A stretch of DNA of 64,000 nucleotides from Chroococcidiopsidaceae cyanobacterium CP_BM_ER_R8_30 (GTDB taxonomy: Bacteria > Cyanobacteriota > Cyanobacteriia > Cyanobacteriales > Chroococcidiopsidaceae), in the NCBI GenBank assembly GCA_019244235.1, contig JAFASY010000297.1, positions 1-64,000 of the forward strand, read 5' to 3'. Below, one piece after another: positions 3,958 to 55,649 of this stretch (the stretch's first letter is position 1; each line of letters opens with the position of its first letter). A program made the position numbers and the translations under genes. The notes below the pieces were generated by a model. It saw nothing but the letters and a program-made list of their open reading frames with translations, had not been told where the DNA came from and searched no databases.

Positions 3958-4440
3958 TTGAGGCACCTGGTAAGCAAAGTGAAGAGTAAGGGAAGAAAGA
4001 TTCGGACGCTGAAGACTGTGTTGGTACTAACAATTGACATCATTCTTAAGTCTCTAGGTGATGTCAATCTCAGTCATGGCATGAAACACGTTGGCAAAGT
4101 AGATTTTTTCAACCCTGGAACTTTTCTTGCAGATGGGTTTCAAGTATTCACCAATGTTTGGATTTTACTTGGGATTACACTTTTGATTGGGTATTCGCTG
4201 CTGGAACTGGCAGGGCTTTCCTGGCTCGACCTGAGTTACATGCTCCCTATGACTGCATTTACTTACGTATTGACCGCCTTCTTGGCACAGTGGCTCCTGC
4301 ACGAACATATCTCTCTCACGAGGTGGGCAGGTATATCTGTGATCTCACTCGGCGTCATTATTGTTGGCTTAGGCGAACGTAAACAACAAAAAATTCCGAA
4401 GGCAGAAAGCTCCCGATTGACGTACCGTGCTCCAAGATGA
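3958..4440 (+). CDS. EamA/DMT-family half-size transporter
   Basis: 160-aa membrane protein with an SMR/EamA-like layout: hydrophobic helices at about residues 20-35, 65-85, 90-115 and 120-140, ending in a basic tail. MKHVGKVDFFNP and the last helices (WLLHEHISLTRWAGISVI) fit half-size drug/metabolite transporters that act as dimers. Substrate unknown. The start is uncertain: TTG 3958 opens the frame, GTG 3979 is an alternative, and neither has a good ribosome site. The stop codon lies inside a ~105-bp direct repeat (4436-4540), so the native C-terminus may have been altered. Confidence 0.7.
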   Translation: MRHLVSKVKSKGRKIRTLKTVLVLTIDIILKSLGDVNLSHGMKHVGKVDFFNPGTFLADGFQVFTNVWILLGITLLIGYSLLELAGLSWLDLSYMLPMTAFTYVLTAFLAQWLLHEHISLTRWAGISVISLGVIIVGLGERKQQKIPKAESSRLTYRAPR

Positions 4441-4540
4441 GTGGCAGTAAACAATTTTAACTCTCACCAAAATCTCTCAACCGCTAGCTTCACTGCCGTG
4501 TTCTGCCGCTGACATCCCAATTAGTTCCAATACATCTCCT
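4436..4540. repeat. Direct repeat, left copy (acetyltransferase 3'-end sequence)
   Basis: About 105 bp that matches 5541-5645 at roughly 90% by eye; both share the core AACTCTCACCAAAATCTCTC. On the minus strand it reads as the last codons of the CatB-like acetyltransferase (LELIGMSAAEHG..ASG stop). It is therefore a detached copy of that gene's 3' end plus trailing sequence. Confidence 0.8.
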
Positions 4541-4575
4541 TCCGCAAAGAACGCCTCATTGGGCTGCTGGTGGAT

Positions 4576-4977
4576 CTATGGGAACAGCCTCAAACGAATC
4601 CAGAGTTGTCGTGCAGCTACTTGAGAAAAGCTGTTCATCTCCAGACACTTGACAGTAACTCTTCCAATTGAAGTGATGCCTACAACCATACCAGACTCCA
4701 CGTCGACCTGAAAATGCTCGTTCCATCGGTCTTGTCTTGGGTGGAAAAAACGAATTTTAGTGTTGGAGTTGGAATTTATGCCACTGATACGAGTTCCTTT
4801 ACGGAGATTACAAGAGCGACAAGCGAGGGCTAAATTAGATTCGTCATCTGCACCTTGTCTATAGAGTGGAATAATATGCTCCACTTCAAACGGGAAATTG
4901 AATACAAATTCAGGCGCATGACAATACTCGCAGCGATGCGTGGCGCGGTCTGCAACCACTGTGTAGTAAGGATTCAT
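4576..4977 (-). CDS. HNH endonuclease
   Basis: 133-aa HNH nuclease. It has a zinc-type CxxC (CEYCH, residues about 17-21), then EHIIPLYRQGADDESNLALA giving the His and Asn of the HNH fold, and CRSCNLRKG as the second Cys pair. The C-terminal part (FHPRQDRW...GITSIGRVTVKCLEMN...ARQLWI) is shared with the HNH protein at 27595-28020. Its ATG overlaps the stop of the upstream 119-aa gene (TAATG), implying translational coupling. The pair lies between two ~105-bp direct repeats. Such standalone HNH proteins are common in cyanobacteria and their biological target is unknown. Confidence 0.85.
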   Translation of the reverse strand: MNPYYTVVADRATHRCEYCHAPEFVFNFPFEVEHIIPLYRQGADDESNLALACRSCNLRKGTRISGINSNSNTKIRFFHPRQDRWNEHFQVDVESGMVVGITSIGRVTVKCLEMNSFSQVAARQLWIRLRLFP

Positions 4978-5336
4978 TAGCTTGATTGCTGCATCAATGC
5001 CGATGTTCGGGCTGTGGCAGCTCTCAATTCAGCATCAACAAGACTATCCAACTCTGCTTGTTGTTCTAGAGAAAATTCTTGACCGTGGTCGCGCGCTGTT
5101 CGCCATAAACTCATTAATTCAGATAACCGTTTCTGCTGTTCAGCACCGAAGAACGAATCGGGACGAAAATTTTGGATAATCAACAGCGCACTGAACTCGG
5201 TTTCCCCCAACTGAGTTGTCAATGCATCCAGAGCTTGTCCTGCCGTTTTGCCAATCGATTGCTTGTCGCCTGCGATGGCACAATATGATTTTTCACCATT
5301 TGCATCGGAGATTGGCAGGATAGCTACAGTGGTCAT
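4977..5336 (-). CDS. Hypothetical protein coupled to HNH endonuclease
   Basis: 119 aa, soluble, not recognised as a named domain. The N-terminus (MTTVAILPISDANGEKSYCA) looks like beta strands; the rest is helical and charged, including FSLEQQAELDSLVDAELRAA. This helix resembles LTKEEQQELFALRQAADQL in the partner of the other HNH gene (27173-27598), so these partners may share a helical module. It is upstream of and overlaps the HNH gene. A partner, adaptor or antitoxin-like role is only inferred from the coupling. Confidence 0.6.
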   Translation of the reverse strand: MTTVAILPISDANGEKSYCAIAGDKQSIGKTAGQALDALTTQLGETEFSALLIIQNFRPDSFFGAEQQKRLSELMSLWRTARDHGQEFSLEQQAELDSLVDAELRAATARTSALMQQSS

Positions 5337-5540
5337 TTTCTCATCTTGAGGTCATTTGCCTCAAATTATAGCTCCAGTGAAGTATCAGTTAGTACGCTGA
5401 GGCTGCTAACAACCTTTACACTCCACCAGCAGCTTCTTCAGTCCGCTGTCCCAGGATTATTAACTTGCTCTCACTAATAACTTGGCACAAGGCGAATCCA
5501 AAACACTATCTGTGCCAAGAGACTGAGGGATAAGGGCAAA

Positions 5541-5645
5541 GATGAGCGGTGGTAAACAATAGCAACTCTCACCAAAATCTCTCAACCGCTAGCTCCACCT
5601 CCGTGTTCTGCCGCTGACATCCCGATTAGTTCCAATACCTCTCCT
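5541..5645. repeat. Direct repeat, right copy
   Basis: Partner of 4436-4540. Bases 5582-5645 are the true 3' end of the acetyltransferase gene; 5541-5581 are its downstream flank. The two copies bracket the HNH/119-aa gene pair. Confidence 0.8.
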
Positions 5646-6232
5646 CGTGGCTCTTTCCACTGAATATCTTGTAACCAGTCGTCTGAGTTAGTGTACAGCC
5701 AATCTAAATTAGCCGCGATTTTAGATTCTTCCCAATCCCACCAGCATAGTTTGAGTAGACGTTCTATCGTCTCAGGCTTGAATCGATAACGAATTACCTC
5801 GGCTGGATTACCAACCACAATTGCATAATCGGGAACATCTTTAGCAACAACAGCCTGTGCGCCTACCACTGCACCATTGCCAATTTTGACCCCCGACAAA
5901 ACTGTAGCTCCATGACCTATCCAAACATCATGACCTATGACTGTTGCCCCCTTATTTGCAGCGTCAGTGTAACGTTCTTCAGGTTCTGCTCTTGTGGACA
6001 ACCACTTGAAAGGAAATGTCGTTGCTCGCGTCATCATATGATTTCCTCCAGCCAAAATGACAACATCCTTGGCTAGAGAACAAAACTTCCCAATCTCAAT
6101 TCGGTCGTCGGGTGTAAATATTGCTAAGCTGATGTGCCGATCGAAGTAGGTGTAGCCTCCAACTACGATTCGCGAATCTTGAACGTGAGCTTTCAGCCAA
6201 ATAGGAGGAGAAGAATATTCGAGCATAGTCAT
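5582..6232 (-). CDS. CatB-related O-acetyltransferase (xenobiotic acyltransferase family)
   Basis: 216-aa left-handed beta-helix acyltransferase that moves an acetyl group from acetyl-CoA to a hydroxyl; the substrate is unknown. Hexapeptide repeats run from about residue 45 to 145 (IEIGKFCSLAKDVVIL, ATVIGHDVWIGHGATVLSGV, KIGNGAVVGAQAVV). NHMMTRATTFPF carries the conserved His region of the CatB/VatD subgroup, and VVGNPAEVIRYRF closes the fold. Length fits. The 3' end is duplicated about 1.1 kb downstream, next to an HNH gene pair. It could act on chloramphenicol-like drugs or on an endogenous sugar; sequence cannot decide. Confidence 0.88.
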   Translation of the reverse strand: MTMLEYSSPPIWLKAHVQDSRIVVGGYTYFDRHISLAIFTPDDRIEIGKFCSLAKDVVILAGGNHMMTRATTFPFKWLSTRAEPEERYTDAANKGATVIGHDVWIGHGATVLSGVKIGNGAVVGAQAVVAKDVPDYAIVVGNPAEVIRYRFKPETIERLLKLCWWDWEESKIAANLDWLYTNSDDWLQDIQWKEPRGEVLELIGMSAAEHGGGASG

Positions 6233-21115: not shown

Positions 21116-21418
21116 ATGCGGGTCACTGGCTTCGTATGGGACAAAGGGAATCAAACGAAGTGCGAAAAGCATGGGGTGACCAGAGAAGAGATCGAAGCTC
21201 TTTTCCAACGTCCCGTCTGGGTAGCACCCGATGTGAAGCACTCTTCGACTGAGGAGCGGTTTCTTGCTGTAGGTCGAGGGGCGAACCGAAGACCGATGTT
21301 CGTTGTCTTCACGCTCCGGCAAGAGGGGGAAGAGCTTTTGCTACGTCCTATCAGCGCCCGTTACATGCACGAAAAGGAGGTAAAGCGGTATGCCGAAGCG
21401 TTTACCGAGGATGAATAA
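21116..21418 (+). CDS. brnT: BrnT-type toxin
   Basis: 100-aa RelE-fold ribonuclease toxin of the BrnT/BrnA type II system. It has the family opening FVWDKGNQTKCEKHGVTREE (W-D-x-x-K, then N/K and KHGV), IEALFQRPVW, and RPISARYMHEKEVKRY, which provides the catalytic Arg/His/Tyr region. Length typical. Its end overlaps the antitoxin gene by 29 bp, with the antitoxin's GGAGG ribosome site inside brnT. Toxicity is inferred from family knowledge. Confidence 0.88.
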   Translation: MRVTGFVWDKGNQTKCEKHGVTREEIEALFQRPVWVAPDVKHSSTEERFLAVGRGANRRPMFVVFTLRQEGEELLLRPISARYMHEKEVKRYAEAFTEDE

Positions 21419-21644
21419 CGACGAGGAGGCAGAGGCACTCCTTAAAAATGATCTCTCTGACTATCTTGACCCTACGAACTTCTCTCTCGTCTCGTTCGAG
21501 TTCGAGCCGAAGGATACAAGTATCAGTATTCGAATGTCCAGTACCCTCTTACACACCGTCAAAGAGGCGGCAAAGCGGCGTGGTATGAGTTATCAACGGT
21601 ACATCCGAGAAGCAGTCGAGCGATCACTCCATGAGCGGCAATGA
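21390..21644 (+). CDS. brnA: BrnA-like/ribbon-helix-helix antitoxin
   Basis: 84-aa antitoxin partner of BrnT. The C-terminal half (KDTSISIRMSSTLLHTVKEA, then AKRRGMSYQRYIREAVERSL) is a ribbon-helix-helix DNA-binding fold; the N-terminal acidic half would wrap the toxin. It overlaps brnT by 29 bp and has a strong ribosome site (AAGGAGG, about 9 bp before ATG 21390). Such antitoxins normally repress their own promoter upstream of brnT. Confidence 0.85.
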   Translation: MPKRLPRMNNDEEAEALLKNDLSDYLDPTNFSLVSFEFEPKDTSISIRMSSTLLHTVKEAAKRRGMSYQRYIREAVERSLHERQ

Positions 21645-23425: not shown

Positions 23426-24550
23426 ATGCCCCCCATCCCAGAAACAACAATAGGCGTAGCAGTAGCAGGAACCGGATTTGGTCAGAAAGTCCACATCCCC
23501 GGCATCCTCGCCCATCCCCGCACCCAACTCGTCGCCGTTTACCACCGAGACATAGAACAAGCCAGCGTGATCGCCTCAACTCACAACATTCCCTACGCCT
23601 GTGACACCATTGCCGATCTCGTAGCCCTACCCGAAGTACAAGCAGTCAGCATCTCAACCCCACCATTTCTACACTACGAAATGGCAAAGACAGTCCTGCA
23701 AGCCCAAAAGCACCTATTACTAGAAAAACCCACAACCCTCTGCGCTACTGAGGCAAGAGAACTTTACCAGCTAGCATTAGCAAATGGAGTCATCGCCACA
23801 CTAGACTTCGAGTTTCGCTTCATCCCCGCATGGCAGCATTTAGCAGAACTTCTCTGTGAGGGGTATGTTGGGCAGAAGCGCCTCATTAGAGTTGATTGGT
23901 TAGTCTCAAGCCGCGCCGATGCCTCACGTCCTTGGAACTGGTATTCCAGAAAAGATCGAGGTGGGGGCGCACTAGGAGCCCTAGGTTCCCATGCCTTCGA
24001 CTATATCAATTGGCTATTTGGACCAGTGCGGCGTTTATGCGCTCGTTTAAGCACTGCCATTCCCACACGCCCCGATCCAGCCACAGGCGAAATGAAACCT
24101 GTAGATGCAGATGACACCTGTCTGCTGATGTTAGAGCTAGCAGATGGAACACCCTGCCAGGTTAGCATCAGTGCTGCCGTCCATGCCCCTCGTCCACATT
24201 GGCTAGAAGTTTATGGCGATCGCGGCACATTAGTTTTAGGCAGTCATAATCAGAAAGATTACGTACATGGCTTTCACCTATGGGCAGCACCATCTGGTCA
24301 ACCCTTGACTGAGGTAGAGATTCCTATACATCTAGCATTTCCTCAAACTTACACGGATGGTCGGGTTGCCCCATTTATTAGAGTTGTAGATCAATGGGTG
24401 CGAGGCATTGACCGAGGAGAAGCACTGACTCCCTCTCTGAAGGAGGGGGTTTATTCTCAATTATTAATGGATCTTGCCCAAGCCTCCCACGAACAGGGTA
24501 ACTGGATTGATGTCCCAGAATTAGATATGTTTCTCACCGAAAATTCATGA
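23426..24550 (+). CDS. Gfo/Idh/MocA family oxidoreductase
   Basis: 374-aa NAD(P)-dependent sugar-type dehydrogenase. The Rossmann half starts with GVAVAGTGFGQKVHIPGIL (GxGxxG) and holds the EKP motif in HLLLEKPTTLC with the active-site Lys. The C-terminal alpha/beta domain begins at about 125 and includes GGGALGALGSHAFDYINWLF with the conserved His. Substrate unknown. Bases from about 23925 to 24549 are repeated almost exactly at 25222-25846, so the C-terminal two-thirds exist twice. Confidence 0.92.
   Translation: MPPIPETTIGVAVAGTGFGQKVHIPGILAHPRTQLVAVYHRDIEQASVIASTHNIPYACDTIADLVALPEVQAVSISTPPFLHYEMAKTVLQAQKHLLLEKPTTLCATEARELYQLALANGVIATLDFEFRFIPAWQHLAELLCEGYVGQKRLIRVDWLVSSRADASRPWNWYSRKDRGGGALGALGSHAFDYINWLFGPVRRLCARLSTAIPTRPDPATGEMKPVDADDTCLLMLELADGTPCQVSISAAVHAPRPHWLEVYGDRGTLVLGSHNQKDYVHGFHLWAAPSGQPLTEVEIPIHLAFPQTYTDGRVAPFIRVVDQWVRGIDRGEALTPSLKEGVYSQLLMDLAQASHEQGNWIDVPELDMFLTENS
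23925..24549. repeat. Long direct repeat, copy 1 (inside the oxidoreductase gene)
   Basis: About 620 bp nearly identical to 25222-25846, with scattered single-base differences. It covers the last ~207 codons of the Gfo/Idh/MocA gene. Together the copies bracket the DUF6883-DUF4926 genes. Confidence 0.9.
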
Positions 24551-24643
24551 ATCCTAGTGGTACATTCATCCTTCGCTTAAACACGCAATTGCCATAATTG
24601 AATAAAGCCCTCTCATTTCTCCTGTAGGGAGTCCAAATTAGTG

Positions 24644-24874
24644 TTATGTACCTACTAACTGGCTTCCATTTGGCTCAAAATGTAAAACGATGAGTTGTTG
24701 CATCTTGAGGGGCAACATTGCATAGGTCCGCCCCTGCTCATCGCTAAATTCAATCAGAAAAGCATCTAGAGCCAGTTGTTCAACAACAGTACCAACCTGA
24801 CCCCGAACCAAGCCTTGTTCGGGAAGGTCTTCAGTCAATGCCACGATATCTAGTAGGTGAATCGTGTTATTCAT
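24644..24874 (-). CDS. DUF4926 protein
   Basis: 76-aa small beta-barrel-like protein: LLDIVALTEDLPEQGLVRGQ, VGTVVEQL, FLIEFSDEQGRTYAMLPLK, the DUF4926 pattern (an SH3-like fold is suspected for the family). The start is ATG 24874 with a strong GGGAGGAG ribosome site; the open frame upstream to 24946 is not used. It lies 14 bp downstream of the DUF6883 gene on the same strand. These two families recur side by side in cyanobacteria, which suggests a toxin-antitoxin or paired role; this is inference. Confidence 0.85.
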   Translation of the reverse strand: MNNTIHLLDIVALTEDLPEQGLVRGQVGTVVEQLALDAFLIEFSDEQGRTYAMLPLKMQQLIVLHFEPNGSQLVGT

Positions 24875-24888
24875 ATGAACTCCTCCCT

Positions 24889-25221
24889 TTACAGAACATA
24901 GCAACTTGTCAATCGCGGAAAATCTTCTCCTATGCGGACGATCCAACTACTACGGACTATCGCCTGTCCCGCTGGTCCACTCATGGGAAAGTCTAACACG
25001 TACAACTGACCAAACTCGGTTAACTCAGTAGGTGTTGCTTCATAGCGAGAAGCAGCAATCAGTAAGGCATCTCGGAGAGTCTCTGCATCAGAAGCTGTTA
25101 ACCCAAGGGCAGCAGCAAAGACACGAGCCTTATTCTGACCACGTTTATGAGTCGTGTTCAGACAGTAATCCCGTAATTTAGCCAGATTAACGAAGGCGCG
25201 ATCAGAATTTGGTAGCCTCAT
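24889..25221 (-). CDS. DUF6883 protein
   Basis: 110-aa soluble protein that opens MRLPNSDRAFVNLAKLRDYC, with HKRGQNKARVFAAALGLTAS and a C-terminal strand (QAIVRSSWIVRIGEDFPRL). The pattern N-x-x-H-x-x-G-x-x-K-A-R-x-F is typical of the family, whose role is unknown. The ATG at 25221 is exactly next to the edge of the duplicated oxidoreductase sequence at 25222, so its native promoter, if it had one, has been replaced. It forms a pair with the DUF4926 gene. Confidence 0.82.
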   Translation of the reverse strand: MRLPNSDRAFVNLAKLRDYCLNTTHKRGQNKARVFAAALGLTASDAETLRDALLIAASRYEATPTELTEFGQLYVLDFPMSGPAGQAIVRSSWIVRIGEDFPRLTSCYVL

Positions 25222-25847
25222 TACGTCCTTGGAACTGGTATTCCAGAAAAGATCGAGGAGGGGGTGCACTAGGAGCCCTAGGTTCTCATGCCTTCGACTA
25301 TATCAATTGGCTATTTGGACCAGTGCGGCGTTTGTGTGCTCGTTTAAGCACTGCCATCCCCACACGTCCCGATCCAGCCACAGGCGAAATGAAACCTGTA
25401 GATGCAGATGACACCTGTCTGCTGATGTTGGAGCTAGCAGATGGAACACCCTGCCAGGTTAGCATCAGTGCTGCCGTCCATGCCCCTCGTCCACATTGGC
25501 TAGAAGTTTATGGCGATCGCGGCACATTAGTTTTAGGCAGTCACAATCAGAAAGATTACGTACATGGCTTTCACCTGTGGGCAGCACCATCTGGTCAACC
25601 CTTAACTGAGGTAGAGATTCCTACGCATCTAGCATTTCCTCAAACTTACACGGATGGTCGAATTGCCCCATTTATTAGAGTTGTAGAGCAATGGGTGCGA
25701 GGCATTGACCGAGGAGAAGCACTAACCCCCTCACTGCGGGAAGGGGTTTATTCTCAATTATTAATGGATCTTGCCCAAGCCTCTCACGAACAGAGTAACT
25801 GGATTGATGTCCCAGAATTAGACATGTTTCTCACCAAAAATTCATAA
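25222..25847 (+). pseudogene. Gfo/Idh/MocA oxidoreductase, 3' duplicate fragment
   Basis: Codes for the last ~207 residues of the neighbouring oxidoreductase (from PWNWYSRKDRGGGALGALG) with only a few substitutions, but lacks the whole NAD-binding domain and a proper start. The frame is open back to a TTG at 25209 inside the antisense DUF6883 sequence. Low divergence with the frame intact implies a recent duplication. Not expected to be enzymatically active alone. Confidence 0.88.
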
Positions 25848-25987
25848 ATCGCAGGTAGAAGAGTGGAAGGAGACTTATACCCTGCCTGTCGGAAAATTTC
25901 GCGCTTATTGGCGTCGTTGTGTTTTCGTTGATATCTCTTTGGTATTTCGTTGGATTTCCTCTACAATTTAGATGGAGGTAAAATGCT

Positions 25988-27172: not shown

Positions 27173-27598
27173 ATGGCGACGCGGCGAGTGACAATCGAAC
27201 TTCCAGAACCTGTTTTTCGGCAATTGGTGCGGATTGCGGAGGCAACTCATCAGCCAGTCGAAGTCCTCGTAGCGCAAAGCGTCATCAGCAACTTACCGCC
27301 GTCTGTGGATAATGCCTCACCAGAATTGCAACTGGAAGTACTAAGGATGCAAAGCCTTGGTACTGAGGAGCTAGTAAAGATCACTCAGGCTCTAGTTGAA
27401 CCTGAGCAACACGAACGTCAAACTGAACTACTGGCAAAAAATGAAGAGGGCTTGTTGACTAAGGAAGAGCAGCAAGAGTTATTCGCTTTGAGGCAGGCAG
27501 CCGATCAACTCATGCTCCGTAAAGCCTATGCCTGGTCACTTCTCCGTTGGCGTGGACAACGAATTCCAGCTTTAAAGGAATTGCCTATTCCACCGTGA
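27173..27598 (+). CDS. Hypothetical protein with RHH-like start, coupled to HNH endonuclease
   Basis: 141-aa protein. Residues 1-40 (TRRVTIELPEPVFRQLVRIA) look like a ribbon-helix-helix or CopG-like start; the remainder is helical, with LTKEEQQELFALRQAADQLM and the ending LLRWRGQRIPALKELPIPP. Its TGA overlaps the GTG start of the HNH gene (GTGA), implying translational coupling. A shorter relative of the helical part is seen in the partner of the other HNH gene (4977-5336). An antitoxin or DNA-targeting role for the nuclease is inferred. Confidence 0.65.
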   Translation: MATRRVTIELPEPVFRQLVRIAEATHQPVEVLVAQSVISNLPPSVDNASPELQLEVLRMQSLGTEELVKITQALVEPEQHERQTELLAKNEEGLLTKEEQQELFALRQAADQLMLRKAYAWSLLRWRGQRIPALKELPIPP

Positions 27599-28020
27599 CG
27601 ATTCCAGAAAATGTGCGACGGCAAGTTAGCGAGGAGGCAAACCATTACTGCGAGTACTGCAAGACATCCTCTCGGTTGACGGGGACACCCTTGGTCATAG
27701 AGCACATCCTGCCAAGATCATTAGGAGGAAGTGACGATCGCAGCAATTTAGCTGCCTCCTGCTACCGCTGTAACGAGTTCAAAGGTGCAAAAAACCATGC
27801 AGCTGATCCCGAAAGTGAGCAACTTGTACCGCTTTTCAATCCTCGAAATCAGCTCTGGGCTGACGAATTCATCTGGGGCAATGATGGGACTCATATCATT
27901 GGGGTAACACCCATAGGAAGGGCAACGGTAATTGCATTACGGCTTAACAATGAAAATATAGTTGAGGCACGAGCAATCTGGATTGAATTCAGATGGCATC
28001 CTCCATTAGCCATTGAGTAG
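27595..28020 (+). CDS. HNH endonuclease
   Basis: 141-aa HNH nuclease starting at GTG 27595, which overlaps the previous stop; the open frame back to 27547 is not needed. Motifs are CEYCKTSS, then IEHILPRSLGGSDDRSNLAA and CYRCNEFKGA. The C-terminal region (FNPRNQLWADEF, GVTPIGRATVIALRLN, ARAIWIEFRWHPP) matches the HNH protein at 4576-4977, so the two belong to one subfamily, though their partners differ. Target unknown. Confidence 0.87.
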   Translation: MTIPENVRRQVSEEANHYCEYCKTSSRLTGTPLVIEHILPRSLGGSDDRSNLAASCYRCNEFKGAKNHAADPESEQLVPLFNPRNQLWADEFIWGNDGTHIIGVTPIGRATVIALRLNNENIVEARAIWIEFRWHPPLAIE

Positions 28021-53864: not shown

Positions 53865-55649
53865 CTAAACGCCAAAGCAAATCCTAAAGTCAGCTCCCGG
53901 ACCGCCAATGGACCCGGAAGCAACATCTAGGCTACCAAACACAATGCCAGAATTCGATTCAGGCAAAGCGGCGATCGCCGCTTTGCCTTTCTTGAGTTCG
54001 AGTGTCCCTTCAAGTTGTTCAGTAGCCAGAGCATGAACGAGGCAAAGCCCCAAAGACTTTTGCTGTTGGAAATCAGGCTTTTGCGTAAACCCAATACCAT
54101 TATCACGGACAATCAGTTCAAAATTCCTCTCCTTGGTCGCGTAAAATTGAACTGTAATCTCACCAGACAGACCCGATGGAAAAGCGTGTTTGAGAGAATT
54201 TGAAACAAGTTCATTAATAATTAAGCCACAGTGAATTGCTGTGTTGATATCTAAGTAAAGCGGTTCAACATCAACCTTAAAGCTAATCAAATTTGTATTA
54301 ACGCTCTGGGAAATGCATATGACTTGGACAAGGCTCTGAATGTAATCTCTAAAGTCAATTTTGTCGAAATTTTTGGAGCTATAGAGTTTTTCGTGGATGA
54401 GCGCCATTGATTGAATGCGATCGCGGCTCTCTTTCAGCACTGTCAAAGTAGGTAGATCATTAACGTAACGGGATTGGAGATAAAGGAGTCCCGATACAAC
54501 CTGTAAATTATTCTTAACCCGATGGTGCACTTCCTTAAGCAAGAGTTCTTTTTCTTGTGCTGCTGCAGCTGTAGCTGCGAGCGATGCTTGAAGTCGCTCC
54601 TCAACGTGTATGCGCTCGTTGATTTCGCAGCTCAGCTTCTCCGCTAGGAAACGGTAGCGCTGCACACTTTGGCGTAGTTTTTTCTCTGCCTGCTTGCGCT
54701 CGCTGATGTCTTCAACCACAGAAATGAAATATTGCGGCTTTCCTGGCTGCTGCGGCTGCAGCGAAGGTTCGCGCACGAGCGCCACGGTTAAATTAATCCA
54801 GACATAGGAGCCGTCTTTCCGGATATAGCGCTTTTCCATCGAGTAAGTCTGGATTTTGCCTGCCAACAGTTGATGAACATTCTCAAGGTCAGCTTCGAGG
54901 TCGTTAGGGTGAGTAATGTCTTGAAAAGTTCGCGCTTCTAGCTCTTTTTGCGAATAACCAACAATGTCGCAAAGTTTTTGATTGACCAATAGCCACTTTC
55001 CCTCTAAGTTTACCTGAGCAATGCCGACAGCAGCCTGATTGAACGTAGCCCGAAATTGCTCTTCACTCGCAGCTGCAGCTGCAGCAGTCCTTTTCAGTTT
55101 TTCCTCAGCCTGCTCACGCTCATGGATTTGTCCCTTCAAAGTAGAATTAGCAATACTCAGCTCACTGGTTCTTTCGGCAATCCGGAGTTCCAATTCCTCC
55201 TTTAAATGGCGTAGAGCCTCCTCTGTTCGCTTGTGTTCTTGAATTCGGAACGCCAATTCCTGGTTGGCTGCTTCTAATTGAGTGGGGCTTGGCAGAGCCA
55301 GTGCTTTAGGAATCAGTGGTGCTAGTTCTACCGCCGTTGCTACTGAGATCACAGCCGTGAGAGCTTTCAATAAGCCTGATAACCAATAGGTAGGGTGCCA
55401 TAGCGTCCAAATGTTCATCACATGAGTCGTGCCACAAGCGATGATAAAGCCTCCAAACAACAAGAACATCTGTTTGAAAGGGAGATCTTGTCTCTGCCGC
55501 ACAAAATAGACCAACATCAGCGGAATGGAATAATAGGCCAGTGCTATGAGCACGTCCGCCAGAATGTGCAGCCCAACTAGTCTTGGTTGCCAGAGATAGC
55601 AATGTCCGTGCGGAATGAACTGGCTTGAGAATAAAAAGTCATTCATCAA
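53865..55649 (-). CDS. Ethylene-receptor-like sensor histidine kinase with PAS domain
   Basis: 594-aa membrane kinase. The first ~110 residues hold three helices with every residue known to matter for Cu(I)/ethylene binding in ETR1, each offset by 7: Asp32, Tyr39, Ile42, Pro43, Cys72 and His76 ([31 protein letters not shown]). A coiled coil, a PAS domain (about 190-320, [13 protein letters not shown]), a HisKA_2 box ([19 protein letters not shown]) and an ATPase domain ([23 protein letters not shown]) follow. Synechocystis SynEtr1 is the established relative. The ATPase end holds an unusual ~30-aa insertion around a 28-bp palindrome. Confidence 0.92.
53961..53988. repeat. 28-bp perfect palindrome centred on HIP1, inside the kinase gene
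   Basis: Arms AGGCAAAGCGGCGA / TCGCCGCTTTGCCT with no loop; the HIP1 octamer GCGATCGC is the exact centre (53971-53978). It encodes part of an extra segment ([13 protein letters not shown]) not seen in the paralogous kinase at 52746-53834. Confidence 0.85.

What the first reader, a model, noticed from the sequence alone, without database searches (positions are those of the whole stretch)
23925..25847. DUF6883-DUF4926 pair between near-identical 620-bp copies of the oxidoreductase 3' part
The last ~207 codons of the Gfo/Idh/MocA gene are repeated with very few changes, and the DUF6883 ATG (25221) abuts the repeat edge (25222). The module reads against the oxidoreductase. This is the second case in one window of a small two-gene unit framed by a duplicated 3' gene end, which suggests a common route of entry.
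Basis: partly seen in the sequence, partly recalled or inferred. Interest (0 to 1): 0.62.

Follow-up and report, generated by a model that had tools for sequence, protein, structure and literature searches.

The report
Toxin gene pair inside duplicated target
In this cyanobacterium a two-gene module that looks like a toxin and its antidote sits between two near-identical copies of the end of a metabolic gene, and a sister case in another cyanobacterium, where a relative keeps the uninterrupted site, shows that such modules can enter chromosomes by duplicating a stretch of their target, as restriction-modification genes are known to do.

Summary
A 628-bp direct repeat (95.7% identical) of the oxidoreductase 3' end (23926-24553 / 25223-25850) frames DUF6883 and DUF4926, and a 107-bp repeat frames an HNH two-gene unit at 4434-5645. 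In about 790 kb sampled from this genome only two other spaced repeats of this kind were found. DUF6883 is predicted to be a CdiA-CT-like (BECR-type) RNase toxin and DUF4926 its SH3-like antitoxin; the pair was present in 133 of 133 cases. Other toxin-antitoxin (TA) pairs in related genomes are framed the same way, small genes at core loci never (0/297), but about 9 in 10 DUF6883 modules show no frame. The best evidence is a second DUF6883 insertion: hsdM - DUF6883 - DUF4926 - 128-bp copy of the hsdM end - ParDE, against uninterrupted hsdM - ParDE in a relative. [quoted passage not shown] At the window locus the copies differ mostly synonymously and neither evolves faster, so the divergence is not decay of a dead fragment; one copy was probably imported as an allele. 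No strict empty site was found for the window locus itself. New variant of a known kind.

The parts
23426..24550 (+). intact Gfo/Idh/MocA oxidoreductase gene, 374 aa
   Evidence: PF01408, PF02894, PF22725; orthologues at 61-81% identity in most of 40 related genomes
23926..24553 (+). repeat copy 1: 3' part of the intact oxidoreductase gene
   Evidence: self-BLAST, 628 bp, 95.7%
24644..24874 (-). DUF4926, 76 aa, predicted SH3-like antitoxin or immunity protein
   Evidence: PF16277; AF2 pLDDT 82; weak SH3/KOW-like PDB matches; beside DUF6883 in 133 of 133 cases
24889..25221 (-). DUF6883, 110 aa, predicted BECR-type RNase toxin
   Evidence: PF21814; AF2 pLDDT 90.5; best PDB matches are CdiA-CT toxins 6cp8 and 6cp9
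25223..25850 (+). repeat copy 2: detached 3' part of the oxidoreductase gene
   Evidence: self-BLAST
25209..25847 (+). open frame over copy 2 (TTG start, 212 aa), no stop codons; fragment without the NAD-binding domain
4434..4540 (+). second case, left repeat copy (107 bp, 89.7%)
5539..5645 (+). second case, right repeat copy: 3' end of the acetyltransferase gene 5582-6232 (-) plus 43 bp downstream
4576..4977 (-). second case: HNH endonuclease gene, 133 aa
   Evidence: PF01844 E 7e-14
4977..5336 (-). second case: partner gene, 119 aa, no Pfam match

Best explanation
A DUF6883-DUF4926 toxin-antitoxin module entered downstream of the oxidoreductase gene by insertion with long target duplication, so that the gene's 3' part now lies on both sides of it. 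Mechanism, inferred: incoming DNA that carried the module next to an allele of the oxidoreductase 3' part paired with the resident gene by homologous recombination at one side. The other end was joined illegitimately (homology-facilitated illegitimate recombination) at about codon 167, or a circle carrying module plus 3' part integrated by a single crossover. Either leaves one intact gene, the module, and a 3' fragment. The module itself is predicted to work as an addiction or defence pair: DUF6883 is a BECR-fold RNase of the CdiA-CT kind, neutralised by the SH3-like DUF4926. Shown: the repeat, its rarity, the pairing, the predicted fold, the constrained pattern of divergence, and an empty-site case at hsdM. 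Inferred: the recombination steps and the activity.
For: 628-bp repeat exactly framing the module. Only four spaced repeats in about 790 kb of own genome, two of them framing two-gene units in this window. All full-length orthologues found lack module and repeat, best 81% identity. dN 0.015-0.020, dS 0.10-0.14 between the copies; neutral decay of the fragment gives on average 14-17 amino-acid differences against 6 seen, 0 of 4000 simulations as low; copy 2 is not further from orthologues than copy 1. Independent insertion: G032 has hsdM - DUF6883 - DUF4926 - 128-bp hsdM end - ParDE - MNT - hsdS; G081 has hsdM - ParDE - MNT - hsdS, collinear from the hsdM end into ParDE. DUF6883 modules fall inside repeat frames 12 times against 3.6 expected for random positions in the same loci; 0 of 297 small genes at core loci do. 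No integrase, transposase or terminal inverted repeat in the 669-bp insert. Precedents: RM systems insert with long target duplications in the order of 100 bp (PMC3874152); effector-immunity modules proposed to enter by homology-facilitated illegitimate recombination (PMC5361080).
Against: No strict empty site for the window locus, because flanking genes are not conserved. Repeat frames are not significantly commoner around DUF6883 than around other small genes of the same neighbourhoods (17/133 vs 28/290; 11/133 vs 10/290, Fisher P 0.051). In the hsdM case the fragment looks like a decaying in-situ copy: it is further from relatives than the intact end, so allele import need not be general. 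Junction microhomology is 5 bp (P 0.037), suggestive only. No donor genome was found.
Confidence: 0.6

Rival explanations
1. Tandem duplication of the 3' part arose first in place (slippage or unequal crossover), and the module was inserted later, or at the same time, into the duplication joint; no foreign allele was involved.
For: At hsdM in G032 the detached copy is further from relatives than the intact end, as expected of a decaying local duplicate.
Against: At the window locus the copies differ by 4.3-4.5% with dN/dS about 0.11-0.2, and neutral decay of the fragment is rejected; copy 2 is not evolving faster than copy 1. No relative shows the tandem fragment without the module.
Confidence: 0.22
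2. The detached 3' part is itself expressed and under selection, so the constrained divergence says nothing about import; the module lies between by chance.
For: The 212-codon frame is fully open and the amino-acid changes are conservative.
Against: It lacks the NAD-binding domain, and the repeat edge matches the module edge to within 2 bp on one side.
Confidence: 0.08
3. Site-specific integrative element that restores the 3' end of its target gene, as integrase-based islands do at tRNA or protein genes.
For: The 3' end of a gene is duplicated and the gene stays intact, in both cases of the window.
Against: No integrase in the 669-bp insert; repeat length and target differ in every case (628 bp oxidoreductase, 107 bp acetyltransferase, 128 bp hsdM).
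Confidence: 0.03
4. Assembly artefact: two strains' alleles joined in one draft contig.
For: Draft assembly of 328 contigs; the copies differ like strain alleles.
Against: No Ns near the locus; the junction shares only 5 bp, far below an assembler's k-mer; a second framed unit lies on the same contig, and the same structure occurs in another genome with a relative's empty site.
Confidence: 0.06

Closest known systems
Insertion with long target duplication of restriction-modification systems (Nobusato et al. 2000; Furuta et al. 2010; reviewed in PMC3874152)
   Same: Small toxic gene pair without a transposase, framed by long direct repeats of target DNA; single copy of the target in a relative (shown here for the hsdM case).
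   Different: The cargo is a toxin-antitoxin pair, not restriction-modification; the 628-bp repeat is longer than the 'order of 100 bp' cited; the copies at the window locus look like diverged alleles.
Displacement of effector-immunity modules in T6SS and Rhs loci by homology-facilitated illegitimate recombination (PMC5361080)
   Same: New module placed after a conserved anchor, remnants of older genes left between successive modules, as in the hsdM arrays.
   Different: Here the anchor is an unrelated metabolic or RM gene that stays intact, and the cargo is not a secreted effector.
CdiA-CT toxins of E. coli 3006 and Klebsiella pneumoniae 342 (6cp8, 6cp9)
   Same: Predicted fold of DUF6883: three helices then a four-stranded sheet; TM-score 0.69/0.70 to 6cp9.
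   Different: Stand-alone 110-aa protein in a chromosomal pair; only 16-24% identity; activity untested.
MuF polymorphic toxins of temperate phages (PMC5576092)
   Same: DUF6883 forms the C-terminal domain of a MuF minor capsid protein on an Anoxybacillus plasmid.
   Different: The window protein has no delivery domain.

Membership tests
Insertion with long target duplication | Long direct repeats of target sequence at both edges of the insert | tested here: met
   628 bp at 95.7%; 107 bp at 89.7%; 128 bp at 93% in G032
Insertion with long target duplication | Target present once and uninterrupted in a close relative | tested here: inconclusive
   Met for hsdM: G032 against G081. For the window locus the gene is single in relatives but flanks are not syntenic
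Insertion with long target duplication | No transposase, integrase or terminal inverted repeats in the insert | tested here: met
   Only the two module genes in 24554-25222; no inverted-repeat ends
Insertion with long target duplication | Cargo is a restriction-modification system (as described) | tested here: not met
   Cargo is DUF6883-DUF4926; claimed here only as working alike
Homology-facilitated illegitimate recombination | One homologous arm from donor DNA | tested here: inconclusive
   Copies diverged under constraint; no donor found
Homology-facilitated illegitimate recombination | Short microhomology at the illegitimate joint | tested here: inconclusive
   5-bp GCCTC; 3.7% of random joints do as well
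Toxin-antitoxin module | Conserved two-gene operon | tested here: met
   133 of 133 cases, same strand, DUF6883 first, median gap 30 bp
Toxin-antitoxin module | Toxicity of one partner neutralised by the other | not testable with these tools
   needs an expression assay
BECR-fold RNase toxin (CdiA-CT kind) | Fold | tested here: met
   AF2 pLDDT 90.5; 6cp8 E 8e-4, 6cp9 TM 0.69/0.70
BECR-fold RNase toxin (CdiA-CT kind) | Catalytic residues and RNase activity | not tested
   Invariant K15, Y19, K31, W93 seen in alignment A1, not mapped on the CdiA-CT active site
Integrase-borne island at a gene 3' end | Integrase gene and constant att core | tested here: not met
   No integrase; different targets and repeat lengths

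The most novel reading that the evidence does not exclude
Chromosomal toxin-antitoxin pairs are a transposase-free class of mobile DNA in cyanobacteria: they travel with a piece of their neighbour gene's 3' end, enter relatives by recombination at that gene, and leave layered arrays of TA pairs separated by gene-end remnants (as at hsdM); the long repeats also allow RecA-dependent excision as circles and re-entry.
Probability: 0.2. Interest if true: 0.75.

Novelty: new variant of a known kind. Interest (0 to 1): 0.5.

Why it matters
How chromosomal toxin-antitoxin pairs move without a transposase is poorly understood. A mark left in the sequence (target duplication, empty site in a relative, alleles of different origin) makes the route testable from genomes alone, and it links TA pairs to the mechanism proposed for restriction-modification genes. 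It also gives a functional prediction for DUF6883-DUF4926, on which the held literature has no dedicated study.

Tried and rejected
Synteny of window neighbours (GGT, 25988, 26442, HNH and others) with oxidoreductase loci of relatives: none conserved, so no strict empty site. Distant search of plasmids for a donor of the oxidoreductase allele: no match. Sequence search of DUF6883 and DUF4926 profiles against PDB: nothing significant. PADLOC and PHROGs: no hit for the module. Viral contigs: only two loci with relatives of DUF6883 (three other queries gave none). Sigma-70 promoter scan of the module region: none. Specificity of repeat frames for DUF6883: not established. CRISPR-like arrays and tandem paralogues explain most spaced repeats in oxidoreductase loci of relatives.

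Full report
Observation. The last 207 codons of the Gfo/Idh/MocA gene (23426-24550) recur downstream. Self-BLAST gives 628 bp at 95.7%, 23926-24553 against 25223-25850, without gaps. Over 626 bases there are 28 differences, 20 at third codon positions. Between the copies lie only DUF4926 (24644-24874) and DUF6883 (24889-25221), both on the minus strand. The DUF6883 start codon ends one to two bases before the repeat edge. In about 790 kb of this genome (window and 60 further stretches), spaced direct repeats of at least 50 bp with 0.2-6 kb between copies occur four times: these two, one framing a DUF4351 gene (L268), and a duplicated RES-type toxin gene (L298, assigned by eye).

What the module is. 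All 133 DUF6883 genes found in the survey loci are followed on the same strand by DUF4926, median gap 30 bp; DUF6883 occurs in 135 of 196 relatives. DUF6883 is modelled with pLDDT 90.5, and its best solved relatives are contact-dependent inhibition toxins: 6cp8 (E 8e-4) and 6cp9 (TM 0.69/0.70, full length). From my own knowledge these are BECR-fold tRNA-cleaving toxins. DUF6883 also forms the C-terminal domain of a MuF minor capsid protein, the position of toxin domains in MuF polymorphic toxins (PMC5576092, listed). DUF4926 is modelled as a small SH3-like barrel (weak matches). Inference: RNase toxin and antitoxin, toxin gene first. The pair also occurs on a Rubrobacter plasmid and in a phage contig, so it moves widely.

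Age and origin of the repeat. If the fragment had been made in place and then decayed, many differences should change amino acids. dN is 0.015-0.020 and dS 0.10-0.14. Simulated decay gives on average 14-17 amino-acid differences and a stop codon in over half of runs; 6 and none are seen, and 0 of 4000 simulations are as low. Of the amino-acid differences, the family majority residue is in copy 2 at two sites (314, 339) and in copy 1 at one (322); copy 2 is no further from orthologues than copy 1. The copies therefore diverged as parts of working genes. The simplest reading is two alleles brought together: imported DNA carried one of them. Divergence then measures the distance between donor and recipient, not the date of the event.

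Generality. DUF6883 modules lie inside direct-repeat frames (60 bp or more, 80% or more, up to three copies, spacer up to 2 kb) 12 times, against 3.6 +/- 1.6 expected for random positions in the same loci. With tight edges 17 of 133 modules are framed, against 28 of 290 other small genes or pairs in the same loci and 0 of 297 at oxidoreductase (core) loci; with at most three copies, 11/133, 10/290 and 0/297. So framing marks TA-rich accessory neighbourhoods, not DUF6883 in particular. The other framed units include ParDE (L136), MNT-HEPN (L114), PIN pairs (L142, L224), DUF2283 pairs (L130, L235), a DUF6888 gene with its neighbour (L213), and HNH pairs (L157, L165). Spaced repeats at core loci are mostly CRISPR-like arrays and tandem paralogues instead.

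A sister case with an empty site. In G032 the order is hsdM, DUF6883, DUF4926, a 128-bp copy of the hsdM 3' end (93%), ParD, ParE, MNT, hsdS. In G081, whose HsdM is 95% identical, hsdM runs directly into ParD, ParE, MNT, hsdS; its hsdM end and downstream align without a break to the G032 detached copy and its downstream. This is an insertion of DUF6883-DUF4926 with a target duplication of about 120-128 bp. A further 31-44-bp hsdM-end remnant lies between the MNT(-HEPN) genes and hsdS in G032, G029 and G197, and the unit next to hsdM differs (ParDE, PIN pair, 158-aa gene). That looks like successive insertions after hsdM, each leaving a remnant. Here the detached copy is the faster-evolving one, so in this case local duplication followed by decay fits.

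Mechanism. Long duplications of variable length at unrelated genes, without integrase or transposase, fit recombination of incoming DNA rather than a site-specific enzyme. Two routes give the structure: homology at one side with an illegitimate joint at the other, or single-crossover integration of a circle carrying module plus gene end. The window joint shares 5 bp (P 0.037). A review states that RM systems can insert with long target duplications in the order of 100 bp, and mentions no such case for TA systems in the passages read (PMC3874152; see also PMC1643837). Effector-immunity modules are proposed to enter by homology-facilitated illegitimate recombination (PMC5361080), and duplications by transformation are documented in pneumococcus (PMC3784515).

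Limits. No strict empty site and no donor for the window locus; draft assembly; activity untested; gene calls in the survey are longest-ORF calls; loci were chosen by DUF6883, so the TA enrichment is partly by design. The absence of earlier TA cases rests on a partial library.

Verdict. Real, unusual, and best read as a toxin-antitoxin module inserted with long target duplication. New variant of a known kind.

Noticed in passing
window 23426-24550: Third-position composition of the oxidoreductase gene changes at about codon 135 (5' part rich in C-ending codons; 0 of 300 permutations as strong), about 95 bp upstream of the repeat edge; orthologues show no such break. The skew extends upstream to about 22700.
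   Followed up: partly
window 27173-28020; 4576-5336; L157 6041-6664; L165 4407-5176: A small gene next to a short HNH endonuclease gene recurs as a two-gene unit, three times framed by direct repeats; candidate toxin-antitoxin or defence pair.
   Followed up: partly
L319 7386-9254, L318 6840-8243, L320 677-2256: Layered TA genes between hsdM and hsdS with hsdM 3'-end remnants; the unit next to hsdM differs between relatives.
   Followed up: partly
window 21116-21644: BrnT toxin and CopG antitoxin genes, another TA pair close by.
   Followed up: no
window 53961-53988: Perfect 28-bp palindrome.
   Followed up: no
L298 162-558 and 5331-5724: 397-bp copies (94.7%) of a RES-type toxin gene 4.8 kb apart in the same genome.
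   Followed up: no
L263 3962-4563: DUF6883-DUF4926 pair between tail genes of a phage contig.
   Followed up: no
L187: Closest relative of the window module found (77% in DUF6883) lies next to 859-bp direct repeats that enclose an ISL3-type transposase piece.
   Followed up: no
G034 C1 3651522-3652295: A second, 5'-part fragment of the oxidoreductase (64%, residues 8-264) about 7 kb from the intact gene in G034.
   Followed up: no
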